This document shows positions 12,914 to 32,941 of a stretch of 46,423 nt of DNA, one piece after another. The stretch comes from a virus. Numbering within the stretch: position 1 is the stretch's first letter; each line of letters opens with the position of its first letter. A program made the position numbers and the translations under genes. The notes beneath the pieces were generated by a model. The model was not told where the DNA came from, did no database searches, and saw only the letters and a program-made list of their open reading frames with translations. The stretch covers positions 1 through 46,423 of the IMG/VR virus record IMGVR_UViG_3300032092_000059. One strand, written 5' to 3'.

Positions 12914-13264
12914 GTGTCTGTACAAAGATTAGTACCTTTACATGCAGTAGCTCTTAGCTCAGACCCAATTAATTCTAGAATTGGTGATTTGTATTATAAT
13001 ACAGTTGATAATGCTTTAAAGTTTTATGATGGATCTGTTTGGAATTTAGTTGGAGGCGGAGCAATAACTGGACTGCTTGATCATGTTCATACATATGATG
13101 GAGAAGTTTATTCTGTTAGCGCAAACGAAATACTTTCAGATGGAATTGTTGATGCAGGAAGCCCTAGTTCAAATCTTGATAATTTACCAGGAACTATTGA
13201 CGGAGGAGCTCCTAATTCAACTGTAAATAATTTAATAGGAAATCTTGATGGAGGAACACCATAA
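12914..13264 (+). CDS. Small tail protein with phage-tail strand motif (116 aa)
   Basis: A GTG start (AAGGAGAG 5 nt upstream) gives MSVQRLVPLHAVAL. The motif GDLYYNTVDNALKFYDGSVW is the same type as in the fibre proteins. The acidic, Gly-rich C terminus (LDNLPGTIDGG repeated) is unusual. It is paralogous in layout to the 157-aa gene at 17267, which also directly precedes a large Mtd_N-type fibre. Its stop overlaps the next ATG. Confidence 0.65.
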   Translation: MSVQRLVPLHAVALSSDPINSRIGDLYYNTVDNALKFYDGSVWNLVGGGAITGLLDHVHTYDGEVYSVSANEILSDGIVDAGSPSSNLDNLPGTIDGGAPNSTVNNLIGNLDGGTP

Positions 13265-14625
13265 TGGCTGCTAAAATAAGAATAAGAAGAGGAACTTCTG
13301 CTCAATGGGCAGCTTCTAATAGAATTTTAGATCAAGGCGAGCTTGGATATGATACATCTTCTAAGCTTCTTAAAATTGGTGACGGTTCAACAACTTGGAG
13401 CAATTTAGATAATCTAGTTTTAAATGTTACTTTAAATTCTTTAGTTGCCACCGAAACATACCTTCGCACACAAGCAATTGCAACAGCCAAATCAGAAGCT
13501 ATTTCAACTGCTTCCACAGATGCAACTACAAAAGCAAACGCTGCACAAGCAGCTGCAATCTCTGCAGCAGCTACAGATGCCACCACAAAGGCAAATTCAG
13601 CACAATCAGCAGCCGCTACAGATGCAACTACAAAGGCGAATGCTGCACAAGCAGCTGCAATCTCTGCAGCAGCTACAGATGCAACTACAAAAGCAAGCTC
13701 TGCTGTAACTAGCGCAAATTTATATACAGATACAGCCGTAGCTTCTTTAGGCAATACCGCAGAATTAACATATGTTCCAATATCAGATGTTGGAAACATA
13801 GATGGCGTTGCTTCTCTTGATGCCAATGGTAAAATACCAGACTCTCAAATACCAGCAGGTATTGCAAGAGATTCAGAAGTATCTTCAGCTATTACAACAG
13901 CTATAAACAACTTAGTTGATGGAGCACCAATTGCACTTGACACATTAAATGAGTTGGCGGCTGCAATTAATGACGATGCCTCATATGCTTCAAGTATAAC
14001 TACAGCGCTAGGACTTAAAGCACCAATTGCTTCACCTACATTTACTGGTACAGTTTCTGGTATAGACAAGACTATGGTTGGATTAGCAAATGTAGATAAT
14101 ACAACCGACGCCAACAAGCCAATTTCAACTGCCACACAGACAGCCTTAGACACAAAGCTTAATTCTTCAACAGCATCTTCTACTTATGCACCTATAGCCT
14201 CACCTACATTTACTGGAACAGTAGGCGGAATTACAAAATCAATGGTTGGCCTTAGTAATGTAGACAATACATCAGATGTAAACAAGCCTATTTCAACAGC
14301 AGTAAGTTCTGAGCTTGATAAAAAAACAAATCTTCTTTATACAATAACTCCAAATTCAGGATCATACACATTGCTTTCATCAGACCTTGGATCTTTAATT
14401 GAAATGTCTAACGGAGGAACTTTAACTATTACAGATTCTTCATCTTTCCCAGTCGGATTTGCAGTAGATGTTTTACAGACTGGATCTTCTCAGGTAACTA
14501 TTGCTGGAGATGGGTTTACTCCAGATGCCACCCCTGGTTTAAAATTACGTACTCGATGGAGTAGCGCTACGCTTGTTAAACGAGGACTCAACTCTTGGGT
14601 TGTACTCGGAGATTTGAGCGCTTAA
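13264..14625 (+). CDS. Tail fibre with Mtd_N-like head and Ala-rich coiled repeats (453 aa)
   Basis: Residues 1-60 match the major-tropism-determinant N-terminal type (IRIRRGTSAQWAASN, LDQGELGYDTSSKLLKIGDG). Residues 85-146 are Ala-rich repeats with four TDATTK units, probably a trimeric coiled coil. A segment with DANGKIPDSQIPAGI and two TFTGTV...MVGLxNVDNT repeats follows. The C-terminal domain (about 370-453, ending WVVLGDLSA) is shared with the protein at 23297. Likely a host-recognition fibre. Confidence 0.75.
   Translation: MAAKIRIRRGTSAQWAASNRILDQGELGYDTSSKLLKIGDGSTTWSNLDNLVLNVTLNSLVATETYLRTQAIATAKSEAISTASTDATTKANAAQAAAISAAATDATTKANSAQSAAATDATTKANAAQAAAISAAATDATTKASSAVTSANLYTDTAVASLGNTAELTYVPISDVGNIDGVASLDANGKIPDSQIPAGIARDSEVSSAITTAINNLVDGAPIALDTLNELAAAINDDASYASSITTALGLKAPIASPTFTGTVSGIDKTMVGLANVDNTTDANKPISTATQTALDTKLNSSTASSTYAPIASPTFTGTVGGITKSMVGLSNVDNTSDVNKPISTAVSSELDKKTNLLYTITPNSGSYTLLSSDLGSLIEMSNGGTLTITDSSSFPVGFAVDVLQTGSSQVTIAGDGFTPDATPGLKLRTRWSSATLVKRGLNSWVVLGDLSA
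13516..13698 (+). repeat. Ala-rich 19-residue repeats, module A
   Basis: Four TDATTK units, partly in 57-bp periods encoding TDATTKANAAQ and AAAISAA. Very similar DNA occurs at 18451-18813 in the second fibre gene, giving about 5 kb-separated direct homology that could recombine. Confidence 0.8.
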
Positions 14626-14626
14626 A

Positions 14627-15844
14627 ATGCGTAGAAAAACTGGTAGAGTCGGAAGAAGAAAAGTAAATGTTCCAAATCTTTCTGGACTAAGCAGATCTCA
14701 GGCAAAAACACTTCTAGAGTCAGTTGGACTTAATTGGTCTGAAACTGCCTCTACCATTCAAAATATAAATTTAGATCAATCAATTGTAAGTCAAGAAATT
14801 GAAAGCGGAAATACAATTAGAATTGGTGATACAGTATCTTTTAGCTATTATAATTATGTAGCACCCCCTCCTCCCCCTCCCCCTCCACCTTCAGGTCCAC
14901 CTTCAGGTCCACCACAAGGTCCACCACAAGGTCCACCACCAGCAGTAAGTGATTGTACAGATGACGACGCTTCATTTTGTAATAATATTGATTCACAGGG
15001 ATATGGAGACGTATATCAATATCAATACAGTCCTAGTGGTCAGTTTACATGCTCTCCAAGATATATAGGTAGATCTTTCTGTGGCGTACCAACTCCACCT
15101 TCTGGACCACCTTCTGGACCACCAGCTGCTCCTCCTTCAGGATGTCAAGAATATGGAATTGCATCATATGGATCATGCAACTGGAACCCATTCATTGCAG
15201 GATGTACACAGTCTGTACAAAGATATAATGTTGACTGCACAACATACGAGGATTATATATTCTGCTCTGGCTGTTCACAGCCACCAGCAGATCCACCAGC
15301 TGCTCCACCTTCTGGACCACCTTCTGGACCACCAGCAGATCCACCTTTTGGCCCACCTATTGGAAAATCTGTTTCCGTATCCACCATGGTTAGAACTACA
15401 TCAGGACTTGTTCGTGCTGAAAACTTAAATGTAGGTGACGTATTGCTTTCTGCAGATTTAGAAGGTTTTCCATATAATCCAGCTGAAGGTGTCACCGAAG
15501 AAGCTTTGGCTTGGACAAGCGATAATCCAAACTTAAACATTGTAAATACAACAATAGTTGGAATAACTAGAAGAATTTCAGAAAAAGCTGTTGTAGTAAA
15601 TGGTGACATATTTTCTCAATGGCACTGGATACTTGTAAAAAGAAATGATATAACTCAATTTGTTAGATCTGAAGAAATTATTGAAGGAACGGATTACATT
15701 TTCGATATAGATAGCAATTCATGGGAAATTGTAGATTTGTTTGAAATAATAGAAGTTGGTCATGAAACGGTATCAATAGACTGCGAGCCTTATGATATGT
15801 TCTTTACTGAAAAAATGCTAACGCATGACTCTTTCTCAATATAA
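14627..15844 (+). CDS. PASTA - proline-rich - Cys-rich - Hint-like tail protein (405 aa)
   Basis: The N terminus KTGR is shared with the protein at 23814. A PASTA-like domain (about 13-77, VPNLSGLSRSQAKTLL) could bind peptidoglycan peptides. Then come nine prolines in a row (80-88), SGPP/QGPP repeats, and two Cys-rich segments (ten Cys between 110 and 216). A C-terminal Hint-like domain starts at Ser248 (Cys in typical Hint), with LNVGDVLLS, His333 (SQWHW) and a closing His400-Asp401. Ser1 and Asp in place of Cys and Asn leave self-cleavage possible but uncertain. Position in the tail block suggests a virion surface protein. Confidence 0.7.
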   Translation: MRRKTGRVGRRKVNVPNLSGLSRSQAKTLLESVGLNWSETASTIQNINLDQSIVSQEIESGNTIRIGDTVSFSYYNYVAPPPPPPPPPSGPPSGPPQGPPQGPPPAVSDCTDDDASFCNNIDSQGYGDVYQYQYSPSGQFTCSPRYIGRSFCGVPTPPSGPPSGPPAAPPSGCQEYGIASYGSCNWNPFIAGCTQSVQRYNVDCTTYEDYIFCSGCSQPPADPPAAPPSGPPSGPPADPPFGPPIGKSVSVSTMVRTTSGLVRAENLNVGDVLLSADLEGFPYNPAEGVTEEALAWTSDNPNLNIVNTTIVGITRRISEKAVVVNGDIFSQWHWILVKRNDITQFVRSEEIIEGTDYIFDIDSNSWEIVDLFEIIEVGHETVSIDCEPYDMFFTEKMLTHDSFSI

Positions 15845-17266: not shown

Positions 17267-17740
17267 ATGGCAGTAACCTTTCCAGTTAATCTGGATAATT
17301 TCACCAATCCTCAATCTACGAGTTCGGTTGGTAATCCTTCGCATGCCCAACAGCATTCTGATGCTAATGATGCTATTGCAGCTCTTCAATCTAAAGTAGG
17401 TGTTAATAATTCAACTGTGCCAACAACTCTAGACTATAGAGTTAAAACACTTGAGCTGGGTATATCAAAAAAGATTCAAACACTGTCTGACGCCCCATCT
17501 TCTCCAGAGATAGGCGCAGTTTATTTTAATACTTCCGAAAACACAATTAAAGTTTATAATGGAACAGAATGGTACGACGTGGCTGGCCCAAAATCTATTC
17601 TTGAGCATGATCACGAAATAAATGGATTGGTTAACTCTGTAGAATATGGAAACTATGTCAGCGAAGATAAGATTTTTGCAAATGCTGGTACTACTTCCTC
17701 AACCTACCAAGATAACTACATCGACGGAGGTGGTGCATAA
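17267..17740 (+). CDS. Tail protein paralogous to the 116-aa gene (157 aa)
   Basis: The central motif GAVYFNTSENTIKVYNGTEWYDVAG matches GDLYYNTVDNALKFYDGSVWNLVGG of the 12914 gene, and both end in a short Gly-rich tail overlapping the next ATG. The extra N-terminal 75 residues contain NPSHAQQHSDANDAIAALQ, a helix common in fibre attachment proteins. Likely a connector or chaperone for the following fibre. Confidence 0.65.
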   Translation: MAVTFPVNLDNFTNPQSTSSVGNPSHAQQHSDANDAIAALQSKVGVNNSTVPTTLDYRVKTLELGISKKIQTLSDAPSSPEIGAVYFNTSENTIKVYNGTEWYDVAGPKSILEHDHEINGLVNSVEYGNYVSEDKIFANAGTTSSTYQDNYIDGGGA

Positions 17741-20268
17741 TGGCAATTAGAATTCAATTACGCAGAGACACAGCAGCAAATTGGACTTCAGCAAATCCTG
17801 TTTTAAGAGCAGGAGAATTTGGTGTTGAAACAGACACACTTAAGGTTAAGGTGGGTAATGGCACAAGCACATGGACCCAGATATCTAGCTATTTAAATAT
17901 TACCCCCGCACAGCTAGCAACAACAGTTACAGCAGTAAATGCATATACAGATGCAGCAGTTGCGTCTCTAGGAAACACTGCATCAAATACATATGTACCT
18001 CTTTCTGATGTAGGTAATATAGATGGTGTTGCATCACTTGATGCTACTGGTAAAATTCCAGACTCACAAATTCCAGCAGGAATAACTAGAGACACAGAGT
18101 TGTCATCTGCTATATCAACAGCAATTAGCAACCTTATTGATGGCGCTCCAGGTGCTTTAGATACTCTTAATGAATTAGCCGCAGCAATTAATGATGATTC
18201 TTCTTATGCATCTACAATAACATCAGCTCTTGGCTTAAAGGCACCACTAGCATCACCAGCCTTGACTGGAACTCCTACTGCACCAACAGCAGCAGCAGAT
18301 ACAAACACAACCCAAATTGCAACAACAGCATTTGCTAAAGCAGAAGCAGACGCTGCACAAGCAGCAGCTGCTACAGATGCTACCGATAAGGTTGCCGCAG
18401 AAGCAGCCCTTAGAGTATCTGGCGATGCGGCTTCCGTATCAACCGCTTCTACAGATGCCACAACAAAGGCAAATGCAGCGCAAGCAGCCGCAATCTCTGC
18501 AGCCGCTACAGACGCAACCACAAAGGCAGACGCTGCACAAGCAGCTGCAATCTCTGCAGCCGCTACAGATGCAACCACAAAAGCAAATGCAGCGCAAGCA
18601 GCCGCAATCTCTGCAGCCGCTACAGATGCAACTACAAAAGCAAACGCTGCACAAGCAGCTGCAATCTCTGCAGCCGCTACAGATGCCACTACAAAGGCAG
18701 ACGCTGCACAAGCAGCTGCAGCAACCGACGCTACAACAAAGGCGAATGCGGCGCAAGCAGCAGCAATATCTGCAGCAGCAACTGACGCTACAACAAAAGC
18801 AAATGCAGCAAAAACTGGTGCAGAGGCCACAGCAGCAGCAGCGCTTTCTTCACACGAATCAGACACAACAAATATTCATGGCATTGCAGACACTTCTCTT
18901 CTTGCTACAAAATCATATGCTGACTCTGCAGCATCTGCAGCAGTTGCCGCAGTTATCGATACAGCCCCAGCAGCGTTAGATACACTTAACGAACTAGCAG
19001 CAGCTCTCGGAGACGACGCAAACTTTGCAACAACAATTACAACTTCAATTGGAACAAAGGCGCCGATAGATTCACCAACATTTACAGGAACCGTAAGTGG
19101 AATTACAAAATCAATGGTTGGCCTTGGTAGTGTAGACAACACAACTGATGCTGATAAGCCAGTATCAACAGCAACCCAGACAGCTCTTAATCTTAAGGCA
19201 AATCTAGCTTCACCAACTTTTACGGGAACAGTAGTTTTCCCAGATAATACAATCACTAACGCAATGCTAGCTGGATCAATTGCAAATAACAAGCTTGCAA
19301 ATTCTTCTATTACAATTAACGGAAGCGCAGTATCTTTAGGTGGATCCGTTACATTGGCTACAGGAAATGCAGCAACTGAAAGCACTCTGGGAACTGTATA
19401 TGGAAAAGTAACATTAGCTGGAGTTGACAATACATCTCTGGGAAGCCTAACTCTTCAGAATACAGAGACTGGTATTTTAAACACTGCCGTCGGTAATGAA
19501 TCCCTAAGAACGCTATCTAGCGGAGAAAGAAATACAGTAATTGGTTACCAGGCTGGTACCCTTATAGAGACTGGATCAGATAACACTCTATTAGGAACAA
19601 ATGCAGGAAATACTTTACTCGGCGGAACCAACAATATTATTATTGGTTCTAATGCACAAGCTCCAACAAACAGTACAAGCAATGAAATCATTATAGGAAA
19701 TGGTTCAAACACCTCGTTTAAAATACCAGGAATTGGTCTTTTAGCAACAGCAACAGATTATATTATTACAGCAACATCTGCACAAAATTTAACTAACAAA
19801 ACTTTGACTTCACCAACGATTGTTAGTCCGATATTTCAAGGTCCAATATCGGTCTTTAATCCAACAGATGACAGTCATGCAGTAAACAAGGGTTACCTGG
19901 TAGCAGAGCTAGCAGATGCCGTTGGAAGCGATATATATCCTTTAGATAGCCTTTCTCAATTATTTGACGGATATACATCAAGATTTAAATTAAAATTTGA
20001 TGGAGTAGATTTTATTCCAACAAACCCATATAAGCTTTTGATAACAATTAATGGTATAATTCAAATATTGGGAAACCAAGATCAGCACTGGCTCAGCGCA
20101 TTGCCTTCTGAGGGGTACTTTTTAGATAATGATGGATATATTCAGTTTGGAGAACCAATTCCAGCTGGGTCATCATTTGAAGCAAAGTATATTTCAGGAC
20201 CAAATACGCAAACAGTTAAAAAATCTAGATATCCGTTCAGAGCAACAGATATATTATTAGGAGATTAA
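17740..20268 (+). CDS. Large tail fibre: Mtd_N-like, Ala repeats, YadA-like head (842 aa)
   Basis: Residues 1-55 are Mtd_N-like (IRIQLRRDTAANWTSANP, VGNGTSTW). A stretch with DATGKIPDSQIPAGI is shared with the 453-aa fibre. Residues 238-358 hold seven TDATTK repeats. TFTGTV/MVGLGSVDNT units follow. Residues about 570-670 carry NTxxG-type repeats (ILNTAVGNESL, RNTVIGYQAG, DNTLLGTNAG) typical of YadA-like trimeric beta-rolls. A distinct C-terminal domain (about 740-830) ends it. Probably the main long host-recognition fibre. Confidence 0.8.
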   Translation: MAIRIQLRRDTAANWTSANPVLRAGEFGVETDTLKVKVGNGTSTWTQISSYLNITPAQLATTVTAVNAYTDAAVASLGNTASNTYVPLSDVGNIDGVASLDATGKIPDSQIPAGITRDTELSSAISTAISNLIDGAPGALDTLNELAAAINDDSSYASTITSALGLKAPLASPALTGTPTAPTAAADTNTTQIATTAFAKAEADAAQAAAATDATDKVAAEAALRVSGDAASVSTASTDATTKANAAQAAAISAAATDATTKADAAQAAAISAAATDATTKANAAQAAAISAAATDATTKANAAQAAAISAAATDATTKADAAQAAAATDATTKANAAQAAAISAAATDATTKANAAKTGAEATAAAALSSHESDTTNIHGIADTSLLATKSYADSAASAAVAAVIDTAPAALDTLNELAAALGDDANFATTITTSIGTKAPIDSPTFTGTVSGITKSMVGLGSVDNTTDADKPVSTATQTALNLKANLASPTFTGTVVFPDNTITNAMLAGSIANNKLANSSITINGSAVSLGGSVTLATGNAATESTLGTVYGKVTLAGVDNTSLGSLTLQNTETGILNTAVGNESLRTLSSGERNTVIGYQAGTLIETGSDNTLLGTNAGNTLLGGTNNIIIGSNAQAPTNSTSNEIIIGNGSNTSFKIPGIGLLATATDYIITATSAQNLTNKTLTSPTIVSPIFQGPISVFNPTDDSHAVNKGYLVAELADAVGSDIYPLDSLSQLFDGYTSRFKLKFDGVDFIPTNPYKLLITINGIIQILGNQDQHWLSALPSEGYFLDNDGYIQFGEPIPAGSSFEAKYISGPNTQTVKKSRYPFRATDILLGD
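18451..18813 (+). repeat. Ala-rich 19-residue repeats, module B
   Basis: Seven TDATTK units in mostly 57-bp periods, one period shortened. Near-identical blocks inside the array and to 13516-13698 indicate recent expansion or exchange. It encodes a predicted coiled coil in the 842-aa fibre. Confidence 0.85.
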
Positions 20269-23813: not shown

Positions 23814-25457
23814 ATGGGAAAAAAGACGGGTAGAAAAGCGCAACTCTCTGGAGATTTTGAATATCCAGTACCACCAATAAATGTAGTTGCAACAGATGTA
23901 GGAACAAATAGACCATATAACAATGGTGCTATAAATGTTACTTTTGAATACCCAACAGGTCAATTACCTATTATAAACTATACTGCAAAGTTTACACCAA
24001 ATAGTGGATCAGTTACCTATACAGATTTTTCCGCAACATCTCCAATTGTAATTAGCGGAATACCTTCAGGATTAACTGGCTTTGTAACAGTAAATGCAAC
24101 AAATGCAAATGGAACTTCTCAAGAGTCTACTGCAACCGCTCCGCTTTTAGTTACAACGGTTCCACAGTCACCAAGAACAGTAACAGCAACATCCACAACC
24201 ACTGGACCAGGACACACTACTTCAGATCTTCGTGGTCAAGACGTAGTTTCTTGGGGACACCCAGCAGATGGCGGAAAGGCTATATCAAAGTATATTATTA
24301 CTTCTTCAGATACAGCAACACAGCCAGGTGGACTAGCATCTCCATACGAAACTAATTACCCAGCAACATCTATAGCAATTAGAGAAACCATGGCAACTGC
24401 TCAGATCTATACAGTAAGAGCAGTAAATGCAAATGGTACTTCTCTTGGAGCAGCAACTGGTGAAGTTACAACATTCTTCTCACCACCAGCTTTCTTTTCT
24501 CCGCCCAACTTCTTTGCGCCACCTAACTTTTTTGCACCACCTAACTTCTTTGCGCCACCTAACTTCTTTGCGCCACCGCAGTTCTTTGCGCCACCTAACT
24601 TTTTCGTTCCACCACTATTCTTCGCACCACCGCAGTTCTTTGCACCACCGCAGTTCTTTGCGCCACCGCAGTTCTTTGCGCCACCTAACTTTTTTACCCC
24701 ACCAGGGTTCTTTGCTCCGCCAAGATTCTTTGCGCCACCAGCATTTTTCTCTCCACCAGGGTTCTTTTCGCCTCCAAGATTCTTTTCACCACCAGGGTTC
24801 TTTGCTCCACCAAGATTCTTTGCGCCACCAGGGTTCTTCGGGCCACCAAGATTCTTTGGTCCTCCAGGATTCTGTATCCCAGCAGATACTGAAGTATTAA
24901 CTAAAGACGGCTACAAGAAAGCAAGAGACATTAAGATAGATGATTATTTACTAACTGTTTCTTTTGACAATCTTCCAGCACATGACTCTAATTGTTCACA
25001 AGGATATGTAACAACAGATTGCATGATTAAGGTAGCGGCCTGGAAAGATCTATCTCTTTCTAATCAAGCTACTCTAGAGTCTAGAGTTACAAATATATTT
25101 AAGCAGACTAAATCATCTTTTATGAGAATCAATGATAATGAAAAATATGACTTGTCTCTACTAGAGCAACCTCTTATAAAAAGAGGAAGCGAGTACATGT
25201 TGCCAGAAGTCTCTGATTTACAGATAGGCGATGAGCTATTTAATTATGATAATCCATCAGAACCTATAGTTATAGAGTCTCTAAATGAGATAGAAGAAGA
25301 AAGAGATGTTTTCTTATTTTATAGAGAGCCATGGGGACTTGTTGTAGCCGCATCAATGCTTGCCTATAATGGATGTGCAACAAATGATAAATTTGTTGCA
25401 GAGAATGAGTATCAAGAGTCTGCTGAAGAAGTAGTCTCTGAATCACAAGACAACTAA
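23814..25457 (+). CDS. FN3 - FFxPP repeat - Hint-domain tail protein (547 aa)
   Basis: The N terminus (MGKKTGRKAQ) resembles that of the 405-aa protein. Two fibronectin-III-like domains follow (about 18-113 and 115-219). Residues 221-352 are 22 tandem FFxPPx hexapeptides. A Hint-like domain begins at Cys354 (CIPADTEVLTKDG, DIKIDDYLLTV) and ends near Tyr518-Asn519-Gly (His replaced by Tyr). The block-B His appears replaced (DLSLLEQPLI). Some self-processing residues are thus kept and others lost. It lies directly before the oxygenase operon, making it a candidate substrate. Probably a surface tail protein. Confidence 0.75.
   Translation: MGKKTGRKAQLSGDFEYPVPPINVVATDVGTNRPYNNGAINVTFEYPTGQLPIINYTAKFTPNSGSVTYTDFSATSPIVISGIPSGLTGFVTVNATNANGTSQESTATAPLLVTTVPQSPRTVTATSTTTGPGHTTSDLRGQDVVSWGHPADGGKAISKYIITSSDTATQPGGLASPYETNYPATSIAIRETMATAQIYTVRAVNANGTSLGAATGEVTTFFSPPAFFSPPNFFAPPNFFAPPNFFAPPNFFAPPQFFAPPNFFVPPLFFAPPQFFAPPQFFAPPQFFAPPNFFTPPGFFAPPRFFAPPAFFSPPGFFSPPRFFSPPGFFAPPRFFAPPGFFGPPRFFGPPGFCIPADTEVLTKDGYKKARDIKIDDYLLTVSFDNLPAHDSNCSQGYVTTDCMIKVAAWKDLSLSNQATLESRVTNIFKQTKSSFMRINDNEKYDLSLLEQPLIKRGSEYMLPEVSDLQIGDELFNYDNPSEPIVIESLNEIEEERDVFLFYREPWGLVVAASMLAYNGCATNDKFVAENEYQESAEEVVSESQDN
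24474..24869 (+). repeat. 22 tandem 18-bp repeats coding FFxPPx
   Basis: Exactly 22 units of 18 bp with no indel. The third residue is A, S, V, T or G; the sixth is mostly N, Q, G or R. Early units favour N/Q and late units alternate G and R, suggesting block duplication from both ends. A coding array, not CRISPR. Confidence 0.95.
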
Positions 25458-25495: not shown

Positions 25496-26119
25496 ATGAT
25501 ATACAATAAAAAGCAAATATATCCAGGGATTTGGGTATACCCTAACTCTTTTCCAAAAAGCCTTAATTTAATTAATAGAATTGAGGAATGCGTATCCAAT
25601 AAAGAAACCTCCTGGAACGGCGCAAGCGTATGCCTAGAAGAAGTAGATTTAACATACAGAGATGCCTGGGACTTCAAGCTATCAGATTTAGGCAAAGATC
25701 ATCCTCTTTATAAAGACATATATAATTGCCAAAAAGATGCAGCTGAAGATTTTTGTAATATGTATTCAATTAAAATGGATTTTTGGGAATGGACTAACGT
25801 TGTCAAGTATTACCCAAATCAATTTTTTCAAGAGCATGCAGATGATGGATGGTCTTATAAATGTGCAGTATCTTTAGTTGGTTATCCAAATGACGACTAT
25901 ACTGGTGGAGGATTATATTTTCCTAAATTTAATCTTCATATAACTCCAGAGGTTGGGGATCTTGTAATATTCCCATCATCTTTTATATATTCTCATGTGG
26001 CCCTACCAGTTGAAACAGGCGTTAAATATTCTTTTGTTACTATGCTGGATTATAATGATGATGCCCATACTGAAGAATATGATAGAATGATAGATAACAA
26101 ACACAAGGGGAAAAAATAA
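25496..26119 (+). CDS. 2OG-Fe(II) oxygenase, P4H-like (207 aa)
   Basis: It opens with IYPGIWVYPNSF and keeps His114-Ala-Asp116, DDYTGGGLYFPKF, EVGDLVIFPSS, distal His167 and Lys177. The ten-residue His-to-Lys step is that of prolyl-4-hydroxylases. It should hydroxylate a substrate using O2 and 2-oxoglutarate. First gene of an eight-gene operon, likely leaderless. Closest relative by eye is the next gene (shared YRDAWDFK and TMLDY), a likely tandem duplication. Confidence 0.88.
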   Translation: MIYNKKQIYPGIWVYPNSFPKSLNLINRIEECVSNKETSWNGASVCLEEVDLTYRDAWDFKLSDLGKDHPLYKDIYNCQKDAAEDFCNMYSIKMDFWEWTNVVKYYPNQFFQEHADDGWSYKCAVSLVGYPNDDYTGGGLYFPKFNLHITPEVGDLVIFPSSFIYSHVALPVETGVKYSFVTMLDYNDDAHTEEYDRMIDNKHKGKK

Positions 26120-26120
26120 T

Positions 26121-26861
26121 ATGCTTCCAAATGCAGAAACGATATACCCAGGAATTATTGTATACAGAGACGTTTTTAAAAAAGAATACAACCTGGCAGA
26201 AAGATTAGAAAAGGTTTTAGAAAAACAGGAAAATAAGAAACACTGGAATTTAGCTCAAACAGGTTTTGATACACTAAATACAGACTATAGAGATGCCTGG
26301 GATTTTAAGATTAAAGAAAATGACGGCGGATCTTTAATGTATGGTAATGGAAACCATGTTCAGCAAGAAGACCTTACAGAAGATGAAATTGAGCTAAGAC
26401 AAATATGGAGAGACTCAAAGGGTGTTCAGCTTAGCGCTGTAGCAGACTATATGAATATGTTTCAGCTTCCCCCATTAAATTATTGGGAATCTTTTAACTT
26501 TATCAAGTATGCAAAAAATCAACATTTTAATGTGCACTCAGATCACGGATACTCATACGTCTGCGTTCTTTCATCAGTAGGATATATTAATGATGACTAC
26601 GAAGGAGGGGAACTATTTTTTGATAAGCTAGGACTTAAGATCAAGCCAAAAGCTGGAGACTTATACCTTTTCCCATCTTCTTATATTTATTCTCATGCAG
26701 CAATGCCAGTAAAGTCTGGAACAAAGTATGCTATTGTAACAATGTTAGATTATCAAGAAGCTCCACACACACCTCTTTATAGAGAGATAGAAGCTGGATA
26801 CGAATACAATCATTTCACCGAAGGGAAAAGATTTATACCAGCAGAAAAAAGAGATCAGTAA
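26121..26861 (+). CDS. 2OG-Fe(II) oxygenase, P4H-like (246 aa)
   Basis: It starts with AETIYPGIIVYRDVF and has His139-Ser-Asp141, INDDYEGGELFFDKLG, KPKAGDLYLFPSS, His192 and Lys202. An insertion of about 25 acidic residues (76-98) separates it from its neighbour. The gap to the upstream gene is one base and to the next zero, so expression is tightly linked. Substrate unknown; tail proteins upstream are candidates. Confidence 0.88.
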   Translation: MLPNAETIYPGIIVYRDVFKKEYNLAERLEKVLEKQENKKHWNLAQTGFDTLNTDYRDAWDFKIKENDGGSLMYGNGNHVQQEDLTEDEIELRQIWRDSKGVQLSAVADYMNMFQLPPLNYWESFNFIKYAKNQHFNVHSDHGYSYVCVLSSVGYINDDYEGGELFFDKLGLKIKPKAGDLYLFPSSYIYSHAAMPVKSGTKYAIVTMLDYQEAPHTPLYREIEAGYEYNHFTEGKRFIPAEKRDQ

Positions 26862-27575
26862 ATGATTAAAATTACTGCATACGATAATTTACAAAATACA
26901 GCAAACATAGAACCTCTTTCAGCAAAAAGAGATTGGATGGACGCAACAGAACATAATCACGCATATAGATGTTTCCCTTTGACCCTAGCAAACCAGCTTG
27001 GATGGGGAATATCTTTTCCAGAGGACATAACGTTTATGTGGGATGGAATAACAAGCACATATCCTCACAACGTTAAAGTTTTATCAGGTGAAAAATACTG
27101 TGAGACAGGACGTGGACATGCAACAATTAATTTTAAAACAAACCTAGTCTTTGAAACAGAAAGCAACTACACCCTTCTTTCATTTCCAGTACCAAATAGT
27201 TTTGTTGATGGAGCACAAGCGGTTACTAGCCTATTGTCTTCATCATTTTTTGGCAGCCCGCTACCAGTAGCTTGGAAAATTACAAAGCCTTATACACCAA
27301 TCACAATTAAAGCAAACCAGCCAGTTATTGCAGTTCTACCAATCTCTTTAACAGAATTAAATAATTCTACGCTAGACATTAAACATATAAAAGACATGCC
27401 TAGCCAGCATTTTGAGAAAATGCCAACATACGAAGGTGCAGTTGCGGCAGCCAAAGAGGCGGCAGAAAAACAAATATGGACAGACTATTATAGAGATGCA
27501 ACAGATTACCTGGGAAACAAGTTGGGTACACACGAAGTTAAATCAATTAAGCTAAAGGTTAATAAGTATAAATGA
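26862..27575 (+). CDS. DUF6065-like protein (237 aa)
   Basis: It has the layout I associate with DUF6065: RCFPLTLANQLGWGISFPED (35-54), a GRGHATINF strand, PVPNSFVDGAQAVTS, then AWKITKP and VIAVLPISL. It looks like an all-beta enzyme-like fold without known chemistry. Its location inside the oxygenase operon, with a related protein next to it, suggests it acts on the same substrate or product. The family name is from memory and needs a search. Confidence 0.6.
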   Translation: MIKITAYDNLQNTANIEPLSAKRDWMDATEHNHAYRCFPLTLANQLGWGISFPEDITFMWDGITSTYPHNVKVLSGEKYCETGRGHATINFKTNLVFETESNYTLLSFPVPNSFVDGAQAVTSLLSSSFFGSPLPVAWKITKPYTPITIKANQPVIAVLPISLTELNNSTLDIKHIKDMPSQHFEKMPTYEGAVAAAKEAAEKQIWTDYYRDATDYLGNKLGTHEVKSIKLKVNKYK

Positions 27576-28282
27576 AAATTATTTTTAACTCTAATAGGCA
27601 CTATAACAACAAGGATCTTGTACCTGGACCTACAAAAAATACAATGCCTATGTGGTTTAAAAATGCCAGTAAATATTGGAAAGATTTTGAAGGCAATGAT
27701 GTAGTTGCCCCACCAGATAATAAAAGAGGGCCAGGATTTAAATCTTGTCCAGCTCTACATGATATTTTCACAACAGGATATACATTTACAACGCCATGCG
27801 ACATTAATGTTTTTATGGAAAATGGATACCCGTTAATAAATGCAGAGCCAGGCTATGACGACTTTGTTGCAATACGTTCGCATATGGGAGAGTTCCATTA
27901 CCCTGAAGGATATTATAAATTTGTTTACCACTGGTATCCAAACTGGGGTTTCACTCTTCCAGAAGGATATAGCGCTTTAGTGGTTCAGCCAATCAATAAC
28001 TTTGGTCTGCCTTTTTTAACAGTAGGCGGTATAATTGATAGTGACAAGTACGGAGCACCAGGGTTGATGCCATTCTTTATTAGAGACGGATTCACGGGGG
28101 TGATTCCTAAAGGAACCCCTTATGCACAAATCATTCCGATCAAAAGAGAAGAGTGGAAATCAGAGTTTAACCTGTATACATATCAAGAAATGCAAAAAAA
28201 GCATGATGATCATGTAGCTATTTACAGAGCAGACACGGGTGTTTACAAAAAAAATACATGGGTACCAAAAAGATATGAATAG
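27572..28282 (+). CDS. DUF6065-related protein (236 aa)
   Basis: It starts by ATGA overlap. GFKSCPALHDIFTTGYTF, WYPNWGFTLPEGYSALVVQP, LPFLTVGGIID and IPKGTPYAQIIPIKREEW have the same order as the previous gene's motifs (SFPED / PVPN / ILPISL), so both are probably one superfamily. The function is not known; pairs of this kind with 2OG oxygenases seem to occur in other aquatic phages, a point to verify. Confidence 0.6.
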   Translation: MKIIFNSNRHYNNKDLVPGPTKNTMPMWFKNASKYWKDFEGNDVVAPPDNKRGPGFKSCPALHDIFTTGYTFTTPCDINVFMENGYPLINAEPGYDDFVAIRSHMGEFHYPEGYYKFVYHWYPNWGFTLPEGYSALVVQPINNFGLPFLTVGGIIDSDKYGAPGLMPFFIRDGFTGVIPKGTPYAQIIPIKREEWKSEFNLYTYQEMQKKHDDHVAIYRADTGVYKKNTWVPKRYE

Positions 28283-28295
28283 GAAAAGAAATTAA

Positions 28296-28979
28296 ATGGA
28301 TAACATTGTAGAAAACACATCAGATATTAGAAAACACAGAACGTCTATAACCCCATCAGGATATTTTGGCAATGGAAAAGAAAACATTGTAGAAATTGAA
28401 AATTTGTTGACCGAAGAAGAAAATGAATACCTTCTAAACTTTATTAAGGGCAATCAGATATGGGATCAGGGCCAAGACGTACGTAATGAAAATGGAACTA
28501 TAATTTATCAGCACAACGTATGGGCAGATCGTGTTGCAACAAAAAAATCCCTAGATGAATCAGACCCAAATGTTTCTGTTATGCTAGAGGCAATAATTCA
28601 AAGACTAAGGCTTATTATTGAAAAGCATTTTAATGTAGAGGTAAACCCTACAGGCCCATGTCTAGTAAGATGGCCAGTGGGTTCTATGCAATGGCCACAT
28701 GCAGATAAAGAGTTGCATGAGGGCCCAGACAAGGGCACTGCAAACAATTTCCCTTGGTACGATATTGGTACAGTAATTTATTTAAATGAAGACTACGAAG
28801 GCGGAAGATTACATTTCCCAAAACAAGAAATTGCTTTTAAGCCAAAAGCCAGGGCTGCATATTTTTTCCCAGGCGACTTAAATTATATACACGGAGTAGA
28901 CGTAATTACACAAGGCACCAGATATACCTCACCATGGTTCTGGACTATAACTAAATTAGGAGAAAAAACAAATGGCTGA
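28296..28979 (+). CDS. 2OG-Fe(II) oxygenase (227 aa)
   Basis: Helical N-terminal part with ENLLTEEENEYLLNFI, then His135-Ala-Asp137, IYLNEDYEGGRLHFPK, FKPKARAAYFFPG, distal His199 and Arg209. The Arg makes it the other subtype from its two upstream neighbours. GGAAAAGAAA lies before the ATG. Its end overlaps the next gene by 8 nt. Confidence 0.85.
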   Translation: MDNIVENTSDIRKHRTSITPSGYFGNGKENIVEIENLLTEEENEYLLNFIKGNQIWDQGQDVRNENGTIIYQHNVWADRVATKKSLDESDPNVSVMLEAIIQRLRLIIEKHFNVEVNPTGPCLVRWPVGSMQWPHADKELHEGPDKGTANNFPWYDIGTVIYLNEDYEGGRLHFPKQEIAFKPKARAAYFFPGDLNYIHGVDVITQGTRYTSPWFWTITKLGEKTNG

Positions 28980-29832
28980 TTTCACATCAAAAACACTCTA
29001 TCCTAGAATTGAAATCTACAAGGGCTTGCTCCCAGATCATAAAGAAATTTTTGATGTTGTAAAGTCAACCGAGAGCATTGAAAATGAGTCGGACGAGCAC
29101 TACTTTGTTCCGTGGACAAAATGGAGCAAGTTTGGAACTTACTCATCAACAAAGTTTAAGGGTGCAGTAGAAGACCTTATAGGGAAAAACGAAACCTTCG
29201 ATAAAGAGTATTGGGCTGCAGAAAGAGTCTGGGACGCATACAATGTTGCTATTGAAGACTATATTAAAAAATATAATGTAGAGCTACCAAAGGATTGCCA
29301 GCTAGGATCATCATCATTCTGTAAGTATTTTACCAATGTTGATTCACTAAAGAATAACTTGACTATGCAGTATCACACTGATTTTAAGCAAACCGATAAG
29401 GACGCACCAGGAGATAAGTTTTATATTACATGCACAGTTTACATTAATGATGATTACGAAGGTGGAGAGATAGAATTTTACGTAAACGGAGAATTCGTTC
29501 CCGCATACAAGCCAGAGGCAGGAGACATCATGGTATTCCCATCTGGCGAAGGATACTATCATGGGGTTAAGACCGCAACAAAAGGAAATAAGTATTTAAT
29601 AAGAAACTTTATGTTTTACCCATATGCTGGATCAGAAGAATGGCTTGCAAACCAGTTAAAATATGGTGCAGCAAAATGGGCTGAGATGGAAAAAAGAAGA
29701 ATAAGCCTCGACGTATATGGAGGAAATCTGGTATTTGAAAACGGAAAAGAAAAGGTTCCAACCGAAAAAGAAATACAGGACCACATAGACTATTTGGATA
29801 GTCTAGAAGATAAAGATAAGACGGTGTGCTAA
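28972..29832 (+). CDS. 2OG-Fe(II) oxygenase with C-terminal extension (286 aa)
   Basis: It starts KTLYPRIEIYKGLL, similar to the first two enzymes. His135-Thr-Asp137, INDDYEGGEIEFYVNG, KPEAGDIMVFPSG, His197 and Lys207 are intact. An extra 75-residue C-terminal tail (AKWAEMEKRRISLD..., acidic helices) is not present in the paralogues and may bind a partner. Four-gene chain of overlaps continues through it. Confidence 0.85.
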   Translation: MADFTSKTLYPRIEIYKGLLPDHKEIFDVVKSTESIENESDEHYFVPWTKWSKFGTYSSTKFKGAVEDLIGKNETFDKEYWAAERVWDAYNVAIEDYIKKYNVELPKDCQLGSSSFCKYFTNVDSLKNNLTMQYHTDFKQTDKDAPGDKFYITCTVYINDDYEGGEIEFYVNGEFVPAYKPEAGDIMVFPSGEGYYHGVKTATKGNKYLIRNFMFYPYAGSEEWLANQLKYGAAKWAEMEKRRISLDVYGGNLVFENGKEKVPTEKEIQDHIDYLDSLEDKDKTVC

Positions 29833-30542
29833 TGGAAATTGTATCCCTTAAAGATGATGTTTTTGTTGTTGATAATTTAATTACAGAAGAAGAATGCCAA
29901 AAAATAATTGCTTATTTTGATGCAATTACAGATGCAGGACATTTAAAATGGAACCAGATATCCTTCTACGGCTCATTGGCAATGGGTTACTGGCCATGGG
30001 ATGACAATCTTCTAGTATTTGGATTACCTAAAGACTACTTCTCTATTTTAAAAGAAAAAGTAAAAAAAGCAGGAGAGATCTGTTTTAATAGAGAGCTTTC
30101 AGAAGTAAGCTACCATGCACAGAAATGGGTTATTGGGGCTTTTGCAGGATTCCATTCAGACAACACCCATGAAGATGGAACGCCATCCGCATTTTATAAA
30201 AGCAAGTACGCTGGATTCCTATACCTAAATGATAATTTTGATGGAGGAGTTTTAAACTTTAAGCATCATGATATTGCAATAAAGCCAAAGCCTGGAAGAT
30301 TAGCTTTCTTTAAAGGCGGACACGGTAATGAGCATGAGGTTACTATGGTACAAAAGGCAGAGAGATACACAGTAGGATCTTTCTGGGATAATGCCGATGC
30401 CGTTTACACACCAGAACAAATTGCTGAGTGGGAACAAGAGCTTAAGGAAACAAGGGCAGAGCAAGAAAAAACTTATGAAGAGTGGAACGAGCTTAAGAAA
30501 AAGGGAACTCCTCCAACCCATAAAGGCAAATACGATGTTTAA
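29832..30542 (+). CDS. 2OG-Fe(II) oxygenase with coiled C-terminal tail (236 aa)
   Basis: I chose the ATG that overlaps the upstream TAA (TAATG) rather than the GTG two codons earlier. DNLITEEECQKIIAYF leads to His108-Ser-Asp110, LNDNFDGGVLNFKHHD, KPKPGRLAFFKGG, His168 and Arg178. The last 50 residues are a charged helix (IAEWEQELKETRAEQEK), perhaps for oligomerisation. Its stop overlaps the next start. Confidence 0.85.
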   Translation: MEIVSLKDDVFVVDNLITEEECQKIIAYFDAITDAGHLKWNQISFYGSLAMGYWPWDDNLLVFGLPKDYFSILKEKVKKAGEICFNRELSEVSYHAQKWVIGAFAGFHSDNTHEDGTPSAFYKSKYAGFLYLNDNFDGGVLNFKHHDIAIKPKPGRLAFFKGGHGNEHEVTMVQKAERYTVGSFWDNADAVYTPEQIAEWEQELKETRAEQEKTYEEWNELKKKGTPPTHKGKYDV

Positions 30543-31137
30543 AGAAACTATTACAGAAGACATACATTATTACACTGAAGTGTTTGATGACGTAGATACA
30601 ATGATAAAAGAAATTGAAGCAATGGATCAGTTTCAAGATATTGGGTCTCAAATAACTCAATGGGAGCCATGGCTTTCTTCTTGCAAAACCGTGCAGTATG
30701 GTTATCAAAAAACAATAAATTATAAAAATGTTTTAAACCATAGCGTTAGAGATAGACATAACTCTAAGACTGCCAGCATAATCCATTACAGGGCAATTCA
30801 AATAGCCGAAGAGTATGCTTCACATCATGGCATAGATCTGGGTGATCTCCCAACACATTGTAAAATATATAAGTATGACAATTTAACAAAAATGGGTCCC
30901 CACACAGATTATGACCCAGACTATAGCCCAAAGGATTTAGTGGGTACGGTTTCAATTGTTTTTTATTTAAATGACGATTATGAAGGAGGAGATTTATCTT
31001 TTCCTAATGACAACATATCCGTAAAGCCAAAGGCAAGCAGCGCTCTGGTTTTTAAGTCACACGGAGTTTTACATGAGCCTAAGCCAACAACCGTAGGCAC
31101 AAAATACATGGTTGCGATATTTTTCTTCAAGAAATAA
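30535..31137 (+). CDS. 2OG-Fe(II) oxygenase, P4H-like (200 aa)
   Basis: MFKETITEDIHYYTEVF starts by an 8-nt overlap. His123-Thr-Asp125, LNDDYEGGDLSFPND, KPKASSALVFKS, His180 and Lys190 are present. A longer frame that begins inside the previous gene is rejected as it has no support. Last gene of the operon; no clear terminator follows before the next -10 box. Confidence 0.85.
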   Translation: MFKETITEDIHYYTEVFDDVDTMIKEIEAMDQFQDIGSQITQWEPWLSSCKTVQYGYQKTINYKNVLNHSVRDRHNSKTASIIHYRAIQIAEEYASHHGIDLGDLPTHCKIYKYDNLTKMGPHTDYDPDYSPKDLVGTVSIVFYLNDDYEGGDLSFPNDNISVKPKASSALVFKSHGVLHEPKPTTVGTKYMVAIFFFKK

Positions 31138-31168: not shown

Positions 31169-32941
31169 ATGAGCTATCAGTTAAAAGTAATACAAGATTA
31201 TCCAATCGGCCTTTGGCCGTTGGATGAGTCTTCTGGTACTTTAGCGTCCGATGTATCTGGATGCAATAATGATGGAACATATACTGGCGGGCTAACCACT
31301 GGATTAATACCACTTGTTTCGGGTGGAGCAAATGGATCCCTAATAACAAACACCAAATACATAACCTTACCAGTAACTAAAGATTATTATGGATCCGTTG
31401 CAGACGGAGGATTTGCTGATATAAATTCATCGGATAATGCATTCTCTTTAGAGGTGTGGTTTTATCCTAAAATTACAACAAGTGGCCTAACTACTATATT
31501 TGCAGACTCAGCAACAGGTGTAGGTATTTTTTATGAAAAAGGCAATTTGGTATTTAAGCTTGAGTCGGAAAGGCTTGACTATACTTTACCAAATATTGAG
31601 CAATCCCATCACATAGTAGCAACATATTCTATTACTGAAATGTCGTTGTATGTGGATGGTAAATTTGCAGCAACCAAACCTTTAACTAATTACAAGTTTA
31701 CCAATGAGGTAATTACATTAAAGCTAGGCCCAACCTCAAATGCATCAGATTCATTTATTGTAGATGCACCAGCAGTTTACAGGTACGCCCTAGGCTTAGA
31801 TAAAATTTTAGAGCATTATAATTATTCTGGCACAACATCCCCACTTCAAGTTTCTTACCCAGATGAGGGCACATTATTTGAGATATATGATGACAGCGTA
31901 AGCAAGCAATTTAATTTTGCATATCCAGCTAATCGACCATTAGAATATTTTGTTACAGAGGATTTAATTTATAACACGGAAGAAAAGTATTTAGAAATAA
32001 AGAAAACAGCCTCTGCAGCCCCTAAGAGCGTAGTTGTAGTAGACGCCATAGCAATTCCTGCAGCATTCGACTTAGACTCGTCTAAGATAGAGTGGGAGGG
32101 CGATAACGGGGTATCTGTAAGAACCTCTACAGATGGAACATCTTGGGAGTCTTGTTTTAATGGAAAAGCAATTCCTCAATTTAAGTTAGGTAGCTTTAGC
32201 TCTGAAAGAACTCTTTATCTTGAGATAACATTTACATCATCAGATACATCTAAGTTTATTCCAAGACTTTATAGCCTACTCGTATCTTTTTATAAAGATC
32301 AGGTTTTATATTCAATAAGCAATCCAGACTATATATACACAATAGAGTCTGAGTCAGGATTTGCCTCAAAAGACATTACCCTGGGCAGAATTAAATATCC
32401 TATTCTGTCCCGTCAAAAACTAAACGGATTAACAACGGCAGGCGGGGCGGGATTCAAAATTAATACCGCAGAATCAATAAGAACAATAGAGCTCTTTTTA
32501 ACCCTATCAGACCTTACATCAAACTCTATCATATCAAGTACGGCAAATGGAGATTTTGTATCAGCAGGATACTCCTGGGCAACAAATGGAACTATTACTA
32601 AATCTAATATATCTGCTATTTATGTTAATGGGGTAGACAAGACATCTCAGACAAACATAAGCTCGGTATTCCTTGCAAATGAACTATACCATGTTGTCAT
32701 AGTGACAAATGGCCCAGTATCAGGAACCATTTTGTTTAACCATAAAACAACTGGTGGGCCTGCTAGCCTGTATCAGTATATTTCTTACTACCCTTCAGCA
32801 TTTAATTCAGCCAAGGCCCTATCCCACTATAATATGCATATAGGAAGATCTGCTACAGTTGCAGATGATTCGTCCATAACATTGACAGAAAGCTCCGTAG
32901 ACTTCTATGATAATGATTGGGTTGTGCTACAAAACAAATAA
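31169..32941 (+). CDS. LamG/concanavalin-like minor tail protein (590 aa)
   Basis: It begins with the motif IGLWPLDESSGTLASDVSG typical of LamG-type sandwich domains, then SLEVWFYPKI and HHIVATYSITEMSLYVDGK (residues 90-165), the usual order of the laminin-G-like fold. A second beta-rich half may hold another copy. Such proteins usually bind glycans at the tail tip. It lies between the oxygenase operon and the head genes. Confidence 0.75.
   Translation: MSYQLKVIQDYPIGLWPLDESSGTLASDVSGCNNDGTYTGGLTTGLIPLVSGGANGSLITNTKYITLPVTKDYYGSVADGGFADINSSDNAFSLEVWFYPKITTSGLTTIFADSATGVGIFYEKGNLVFKLESERLDYTLPNIEQSHHIVATYSITEMSLYVDGKFAATKPLTNYKFTNEVITLKLGPTSNASDSFIVDAPAVYRYALGLDKILEHYNYSGTTSPLQVSYPDEGTLFEIYDDSVSKQFNFAYPANRPLEYFVTEDLIYNTEEKYLEIKKTASAAPKSVVVVDAIAIPAAFDLDSSKIEWEGDNGVSVRTSTDGTSWESCFNGKAIPQFKLGSFSSERTLYLEITFTSSDTSKFIPRLYSLLVSFYKDQVLYSISNPDYIYTIESESGFASKDITLGRIKYPILSRQKLNGLTTAGGAGFKINTAESIRTIELFLTLSDLTSNSIISSTANGDFVSAGYSWATNGTITKSNISAIYVNGVDKTSQTNISSVFLANELYHVVIVTNGPVSGTILFNHKTTGGPASLYQYISYYPSAFNSAKALSHYNMHIGRSATVADDSSITLTESSVDFYDNDWVVLQNK

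What the first reader, a model, noticed from the sequence alone, without database searches (positions are those of the whole stretch)
23814..25457. 22 perfect FFxPPx hexapeptides joined to a Hint domain
Seen: an uninterrupted 396-bp array encodes FFxPP repeats between two FN3-like domains and a Cys-started Hint-like domain. Alternating aromatic pairs and prolines could form an extended rod or adhesive surface. I know of no described phage protein with this architecture.
Basis: partly seen in the sequence, partly recalled or inferred. Interest (0 to 1): 0.75.

Follow-up and report, generated by a model that had tools for sequence, protein, structure and literature searches.

The report
Phage fibre repeats with hydroxylase genes
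An uncultured phage makes a tail-fibre-like protein containing 22 copies of a Phe-Phe-x-Pro-Pro-x motif, and in every testable control genome such a protein goes with a cluster of prolyl-hydroxylase-like enzyme genes, so the phage probably hydroxylates its own fibre and these much-discussed 'metabolic' viral enzymes gain a concrete candidate substrate.

Summary
ORF 23814-25457 encodes two FN3 domains, 22 perfect FFxPPx units (24474-24869) and a Hint (intein-like) domain. F and P codons show only synonymous change against a homologue. The array is not an assembly artefact: relatives carry 21-23 units, and more than 100 viral loci carry FFxPPx or FFP/FFPP arrays in many architectures (FN3 or PASTA in front; Hint, Peptidase_S74, Cys-rich or short tails behind). 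None was found in 84,980 cellular genomes.

The array gene heads a cassette with six PF13640 2OG-Fe(II) oxygenase genes (25496-31137) plus DUF6065. The oxygenases' best solved relatives are prolyl hydroxylases, and all six keep HxD...H. Array and cassette go together. All 14 array-bearing control records have at least 5 PF13640 genes; none of 33 array-less ones does. Of loci found through DUF6065 alone, 42/42 have an aromatic-proline array upstream, against 0/27 controls. Phages with nearly identical portals lack both.

Best reading: the array is a virion fibre segment whose prolines are hydroxylated by the clustered enzymes. The Hint domain is a C-terminal processing or capping module: its nucleophile Cys/Ser is universal, but other catalytic residues are degenerate here. 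Hydroxylation and Hint cleavage are inferred, not shown.

The parts
23814..25457 (+). FN3-FN3-(FFxPPx)22-Hint protein, 547 aa
23814..23855 (+). short basic N-terminus MGKKTGRKAQLSGD; similar K/R-rich starts occur in other array proteins
   Evidence: M1, K3, K4, G6 invariant in 13 homologues
23871..24164 (+). first FN3-like domain (aa ~20-117)
   Evidence: AF2 model and Foldseek to tandem FN3
24171..24470 (+). second FN3-like domain (aa ~120-219)
   Evidence: Pfam fn3 aa 144-209 E 7.6e-4; Foldseek
24474..24869 (+). array of 22 perfect FFxPPx hexapeptides
   Evidence: purifying selection; units 21-23 in close relatives
24873..25376 (+). Hint (intein/BIL-like) domain, C354 to C521; nucleophile C354, block-B S448/E451, C-terminal Y518-N519-G520-C521
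25377..25454 (+). acidic, predicted disordered C-terminal tail
   Evidence: pLDDT < 50 for residues 521-547
25496..26119 (+). 2OG-Fe(II) oxygenase 1 (PF13640)
   Evidence: E 2.4e-8; HxD..H
26121..26861 (+). 2OG-Fe(II) oxygenase 2 (PF13640); nearest solved structure Bacillus anthracis prolyl 4-hydroxylase
   Evidence: E 8.5e-12; 3itq/5hv0 1.6e-5
26862..27575 (+). DUF6065 protein, regular member of the cassette
   Evidence: PF19541 6.8e-34; 35 of 42 cassettes; reverse search
27572..28282 (+). unknown cassette protein g27572
   Evidence: no Pfam match; 22 of 42 cassettes
28296..28979 (+). 2OG-Fe(II) oxygenase 3 (PF13640, just under the Pfam cut-off)
   Evidence: E 1.7e-5; HxD..H
28972..29832 (+). 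2OG-Fe(II) oxygenase 4
   Evidence: E 3e-9
29826..30542 (+). 2OG-Fe(II) oxygenase 5
   Evidence: E 5.4e-10
30391..31137 (+). 2OG-Fe(II) oxygenase 6 (listed start overlaps oxygenase 5; the true start is probably further downstream)
   Evidence: E 3.2e-10
14627..15844 (+). second Hint-bearing virion-type protein: PASTA, (PPxx)n Pro-rich/Cys-rich stretch, Ser1 Hint-like domain

Best explanation
The protein is probably a tail-fibre-type virion protein. A basic N-terminus and two FN3 domains hold a 132-residue aromatic-proline segment. This segment is likely an oligomeric fibre or rod, because 44 Phe in 132 residues would hardly stay soluble as a free chain. A C-terminal Hint domain acts as a removable or capping module. 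The array's prolines are the likely substrate of the P4H-like 2OG-Fe(II) oxygenases encoded directly downstream, which would hydroxylate some of the PP pairs to set the conformation, solubility or binding of the fibre. SHOWN: the array and its purifying selection, FN3 and Hint folds, six oxygenases with intact metal ligands, and near-perfect two-way co-occurrence of aromatic-proline arrays with the oxygenase/DUF6065 cassette. INFERRED: virion location, oligomerisation, proline hydroxylation, Hint self-cleavage.
For: 1) Array genes, forward: 70 of 79 distinct array genes with at least 2.2 kb of downstream sequence have a 2OG gene within 2 kb downstream, across FN3, PASTA, Hint, S74, Cys-rich and short-tail architectures. 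The nine exceptions are four PASTA-array-Cys-rich and five long upstream-type array proteins, several of them on contigs with a second array gene or a PF13640 cluster elsewhere. 2) Controls by backbone gene: array present and testable, 14/14 records with >=5 PF13640 genes; array absent, 0/33 (Fisher 3e-12, not corrected for relatedness). 3) Three cassette records lacking perfect FFxPPx turned out to have FFPFFPP/YFPPFFP arrays just before the oxygenases. 4) Reverse: loci found by DUF6065 alone, 42/42 with >=4.9 kb upstream have an array gene upstream; 0/27 array-less controls. 5) Phages with 85-94% identical LamG/portal proteins lack both array and cassette, while array-bearing phages of the wider survey have portals only 53-81% identical or undetected, so the pairing does not follow backbone kinship. 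6) Oxygenase profile vs PDB: bacterial P4H 3e-11, prolyl 3-hydroxylase 3e-10, PHD2 5e-6; HxD..H invariant. 7) Hint C/S nucleophile in 51/51 array-linked Hint domains.
Against: No hydroxyproline or virion protein data exist. Co-occurrence could partly reflect a cassette transferred as one block. The oxygenases are diverse (20-45% identity to the first) and could act on Phe, Asn or another protein. Other phages carry single 2OG genes without arrays, and cyanophage 2OG genes showed no such repeat nearby. The window's Hint has lost the block-B His (E) and the penultimate His (Y), so cleavage is doubtful.
Confidence: 0.6

Rival explanations
1. The array is an unmodified structural rod or adhesive segment. 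The oxygenase cassette only travels with it as a linked block and acts elsewhere, for example on the host surface, on DNA or on another virion protein.
For: Cassette gene order is conserved, as expected for a block moved by recombination. 2OG genes occur in many phages without arrays.
Against: The array proteins differ in every other domain while the array and the oxygenases stay together. Variant FFP/FFPP arrays keep the link. No testable array-less record has a cassette. The closest solved relatives of the enzymes are peptidyl-prolyl hydroxylases.
Confidence: 0.22
2. The Hint domain is an active self-processing module: C354 attacks the preceding peptide bond (N-S shift), giving cleavage or a thioester at the end of the array, so the mature fibre ends in ..FFxPPxF, as S74 would leave ..FK in L035. 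This is compatible with the best explanation; it concerns the Hint only.
For: C or S at position 1 in 51/51 array-linked Hint domains. Hint fold. Some family members keep a full set C/TxxH/HN (L033, L108, L139). Many array proteins simply end just after the array, several with FK, the residues preceding the S74 Ser in L035.
Against: In the window's lineage block-B His is Glu and the penultimate His is Tyr; a group has Asp or Ala instead of the terminal Asn. Invariant C394, C403 and C521 suggest that cysteines could serve structure.
Confidence: 0.4
3. The aromatic-rich array is a membrane-active or surface-binding segment exposed on infection, with hydroxylation or the Hint cap keeping it soluble until then.
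For: Two of every six residues are Phe; charge is nearly absent apart from Arg at x6. Array at or near the C-terminus in many proteins.
Against: The PP pairs every six residues prevent helix or sheet membrane segments of known types; arrays also occur at N-terminal or internal positions (L060, L064).
Confidence: 0.12
4. The array is a collagen-like triple helix in disguise (FFx-PPx read as XYZ triplets with small Z).
For: Third position is A/S/G/T in 97% and sixth is G in 49% of 1,179 units; weak Pfam Collagen match on L035 (0.032).
Against: Gly is not obligatory at every third residue, and R, L, N and V are common at x6. FFPPFFPP and FFPFFPP variants break the triplet register.
Confidence: 0.08

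Closest known systems
Paramecium bursaria chlorella virus-1 prolyl 4-hydroxylase and its proline-rich peptide substrates (Eriksson et al. 1999, cited in PMC9301287 and PMC7700475)
   Same: A virus-encoded P4H-like 2OG oxygenase with Pro-rich viral sequences as likely substrate.
   Different: Eukaryotic virus; from memory one enzyme and PAPK-type repeats. Here bacteriophages, up to six clustered enzymes, aromatic-proline repeats in a tail-fibre-type protein, DUF6065 partner.
Bacterial prolyl 4-hydroxylase (Bacillus anthracis P4H, PDB 3itq/5hv0)
   Same: Best profile match of the six oxygenases (3e-11); HxD..H.
   Different: 20-45% identity among the phage paralogues; substrate and activity untested.
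Hint superfamily: bacterial intein-like (BIL) domains, inteins, hedgehog autoprocessing domain
   Same: Fold and Cys/Ser at position 1.
   Different: Block-B His and penultimate His replaced in this lineage; sits at the C-terminus of a repeat fibre; no evidence of splicing.
Collagen-repeat plus Hint tail proteins of phage NCTB and Hint-bearing virion proteins of Erwinia/Dickeya jumbo phages
   Same: A C-terminal Hint on a phage tail/virion protein; in NCTB it follows a fibrous repeat.
   Different: Collagen GXY repeat in NCTB; no FFxPPx array.
Endosialidase-type Peptidase_S74 C-terminal chaperone
   Same: C-terminal processing domain of trimeric phage fibres; directly follows an FFxPPx array in L035.
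   Different: Absent from the window protein, which has Hint in that place.

Membership tests
Hint/intein superfamily | Hint fold | tested here: met
   AF2 pLDDT 88; Foldseek BIL2, inteins, hedgehog; profile vs 2lwy 5.4e-7
Hint/intein superfamily | Cys or Ser nucleophile at position 1 | tested here: met
   C354; C/S in 51/51 array-linked Hint domains
Hint/intein superfamily | block-B TxxH | tested here: not met
   S-L-L-E in the window; H kept in only some relatives
Intein (protein splicing) | C-terminal His-Asn followed by Cys/Ser/Thr and a C-extein | tested here: not met
   Tyr-Asn-Gly-Cys then a 26-residue acidic tail
Hint/intein superfamily | autoproteolysis or splicing activity | not testable with these tools
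   needs expression
Prolyl 4-hydroxylase-like 2OG-Fe(II) oxygenases (downstream genes) | HxD...H metal ligands | tested here: met
   H114, D116, H167 invariant in all six
Prolyl 4-hydroxylase-like 2OG-Fe(II) oxygenases (downstream genes) | closest solved relatives are peptidyl-prolyl hydroxylases | tested here: met
   BaP4H 3e-11, prolyl 3-hydroxylase 3e-10, PHD2 5e-6; PKHD-type PiuC (7e-7) and LH3 also match
Prolyl 4-hydroxylase-like 2OG-Fe(II) oxygenases (downstream genes) | hydroxylates peptidyl proline | not testable with these tools
   needs assay or mass spectrometry
Collagen-like fibre | Gly at every third residue | tested here: not met
   x3 is A/S/G/T, x6 varied; FFPP variants break the register
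Fibronectin type III | FN3 fold and profile | tested here: met
   Foldseek 1.6e-10; Pfam in 7 of 13 homologues
Phage tail fibre/virion protein | encoded in the tail-fibre block of the genome | tested here: met
   neighbours are Mtd_N fibre, phrog_5838 virion protein, fibre C-terminal-like protein
Phage tail fibre/virion protein | present in virions | not testable with these tools
   uncultured phage

The most novel reading that the evidence does not exclude
Aromatic-proline arrays (FFxPPx/FFPP) are a new class of phage fibre material, distinct from collagen, whose assembly or receptor binding depends on hydroxylation by a dedicated multi-enzyme, phage-encoded 2OG oxygenase cassette with DUF6065 as accessory factor. 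Many viral 'prolyl 4-hydroxylase' auxiliary metabolic genes of lakes would then be fibre-modification enzymes.
Probability: 0.4. Interest if true: 0.88.

Novelty: new variant of a known kind. Interest (0 to 1): 0.78.

Why it matters
Viral prolyl 4-hydroxylase genes are reported among the most abundant auxiliary metabolic genes in Baltic Sea water, with the remark that how viruses use them 'remains cryptic' (PMC9301287). This work points to a physical substrate: aromatic-proline repeats of a fibre-type protein in the same gene cluster. It turns that question into a simple co-expression and mass-spectrometry test, and adds a widespread fibre architecture from abundant uncultured phages. If right, it would be a rare case of bacteriophage-encoded hydroxylation of a phage structural protein, possibly with a self-processing C-terminal cap.

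Tried and rejected
Assembly artefact: rejected, arrays of 21-23 units recur in separate assemblies with synonymous differences. Cellular origin: the 11 genome contigs matches are short and lack this architecture. Known repeat family: no match to the array in Pfam, PHROGs, NCBIfam or PDB sequences. Plain collagen: rejected on register. Hint as the partner of the oxygenases: rejected, because arrays without Hint keep the oxygenases. The three cassette records that first seemed array-less proved to have variant arrays. Cyanophage 2OG loci were checked for similar repeats and none was found. Literature searches for the motif, for Hint in phage tails and for phage hydroxyproline gave nothing relevant. 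The AF2 monomer gives no information on array conformation; multimers were not available. A suspected Hint remnant after the L020 Cys-rich cap was not supported.

Full report
OBSERVATION. The ORF at 23814-25457 encodes 547 residues. Residues 221-352 (DNA 24474-24869) are 22 perfect FFxPPx units. In 200 shuffles of the window no run exceeded one unit. The units differ in their codons, and between this array and the 22-unit array of L017 the F and P codons carry 39 synonymous and no nonsynonymous differences, while the two x positions carry 25 nonsynonymous ones. The repeat is therefore a coding sequence under strong selection for Phe-Phe and Pro-Pro.

DOMAINS. Two FN3 domains precede the array (Pfam weak but recurrent; Foldseek to tandem FN3 1.6e-10). 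After it, starting at C354, comes a Hint domain: a profile of 46 such domains matches the solved bacterial intein-like domain 2lwy at 5.4e-7, and the model (pLDDT 88) matches BIL2, gp41-1 intein and hedgehog. Position 1 is Cys or Ser in 51/51 array-linked Hint domains. The window's lineage has Glu in place of the block-B His and Tyr-Asn-Gly-Cys in place of His-Asn, so activity is uncertain; other members (L033, L108, L139) keep C, TxxH and HN. The array itself is not modelled with confidence as a monomer (pLDDT below 50).

FAMILY. Fourteen viral loci encode relatives with 9-23 units, 21-23 in the close ones. 110 distinct arrays of 3-35 units have A/S/G/T at x3 in 97%. The array is a module. 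It stands behind FN3, PASTA-like or longer N-termini, and before Hint (Cys1 or Ser1), Peptidase_S74 (L035, 6.5e-10), Cys-rich ends or short tails such as FK, FWD and FGSRFIRSY. In L035 the residues before the S74 domain are FK, the same end as proteins that stop there. From general knowledge S74 cleaves before its first Ser, so both would end alike; this is inference.

THE CASSETTE. Directly downstream lie six PF13640 2OG-Fe(II) oxygenases (25496, 26121, 28296, 28972, 29826, 30391) with DUF6065 (26862) and an unknown protein (27572) among them. All six keep HxD...H. Their joint profile finds Bacillus anthracis prolyl 4-hydroxylase (3e-11), prolyl 3-hydroxylase (3e-10) and PHD2 in the PDB. The order OG1 OG2 DUF6065 g27572 OG3 OG4 OG5 OG6 recurs in many phages.

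TWO-WAY TEST. Forward: 70 of 79 distinct array genes with enough sequence have a 2OG gene within 2 kb downstream. The exceptions are PASTA-array-Cys-rich proteins and longer upstream array proteins, several on contigs that also hold a second array gene or a PF13640 cluster. Controls drawn by backbone genes (portal and ribonucleotide reductase) were searched as whole records: 14/14 testable records with an array have at least five PF13640 genes, and 0/33 without an array do. Three records were set aside because the contig ends where the partner would lie (G022, G067, G077). G068, G072 and G085 first looked like exceptions, but their gene before the oxygenases carries FFPFFPP or YFPPFFP arrays. 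Reverse: 80 loci fetched by DUF6065 alone; all 42 with 4.9 kb upstream have an aromatic-proline array gene 0.7-2.1 kb upstream, against 0 of 27 array-less portal relatives. Relatives with 85-94% identical neighbours (L165) lack both elements; L182 has FN3 plus Gly-rich proteins there. Array-bearing records of the wider survey have portals 53-81% identical to the window's or none detected. Counts are of records, not independent events; the Fisher value of 3e-12 ignores relatedness.

MECHANISM. The most economical reading is a fibre-type protein whose PP pairs are hydroxylated by the adjacent enzymes. Steps shown: sequence, selection, folds, intact metal ligands, two-way association. Steps inferred: virion location, oligomer, chemistry, Hint cleavage. 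Linkage without function remains possible, but it does not explain why the array and the enzymes are the shared features among otherwise different proteins.

COMPARISON. The nearest precedent is the chlorella virus PBCV-1 prolyl 4-hydroxylase with its peptide substrates (Eriksson et al. 1999, cited in PMC9301287). The Baltic Sea study PMC9301287 lists viral prolyl 4-hydroxylase among the most abundant auxiliary genes in the water column and states that its use by viruses remains cryptic. Hint-bearing tail proteins exist in phage NCTB (collagen repeat plus Hint) and Erwinia/Dickeya jumbo phages. No described phage system combining these features was found in the searches made here.

HOST. The class of host is not shown. 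The ribonucleotide reductase is closest to those of Streptomyces phages (about 66%), which with low GC (39%) fits an actinobacterial phage, possibly of freshwater; this is inference.

Noticed in passing
14627-15844 (+): A second Hint-bearing protein in the same genome: PASTA domain, GPPS/PPxx Pro-rich and Cys-rich stretch, then a Ser1 Hint-like domain; its Hint part matches virion structural proteins of Erwinia/Dickeya jumbo phages (3e-6).
   Followed up: partly
13516-13703 and 18449-18720: The same 57-bp repeat (ATDATTKANAAQAAAISA) in two different fibre genes (13264-14625 and 17740-20268), a possible recombination or segment-exchange point.
   Followed up: no
26862-27575 (+): DUF6065: in viral contigs it was always found downstream of an aromatic-proline array (42/42 testable); function unknown, highly conserved HAYxCFP and FPEDIxFxWDG motifs.
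   Followed up: yes
L051, L053, L076, L118: In the PASTA-array type cassettes one 2OG gene lies on the opposite strand to its neighbours, an unusual arrangement in a phage gene cluster.
   Followed up: partly
L182:1330-7431: A close portal relative has FN3 proteins ending in long Gly-rich (GGGGAGG) stretches where the window has array and cassette, suggesting exchange of alternative fibre-tip modules.
   Followed up: partly
L154 (phage NCTB LT598654): Collagen-repeat plus Hint tail protein followed by a separate small Hint protein and collagen-repeat fibre proteins.
   Followed up: partly
31169-32941 (+): Laminin_G_3/ConA-like protein next to the portal marks the downstream edge of the exchangeable cassette: conserved in relatives with and without the array.
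   Followed up: partly
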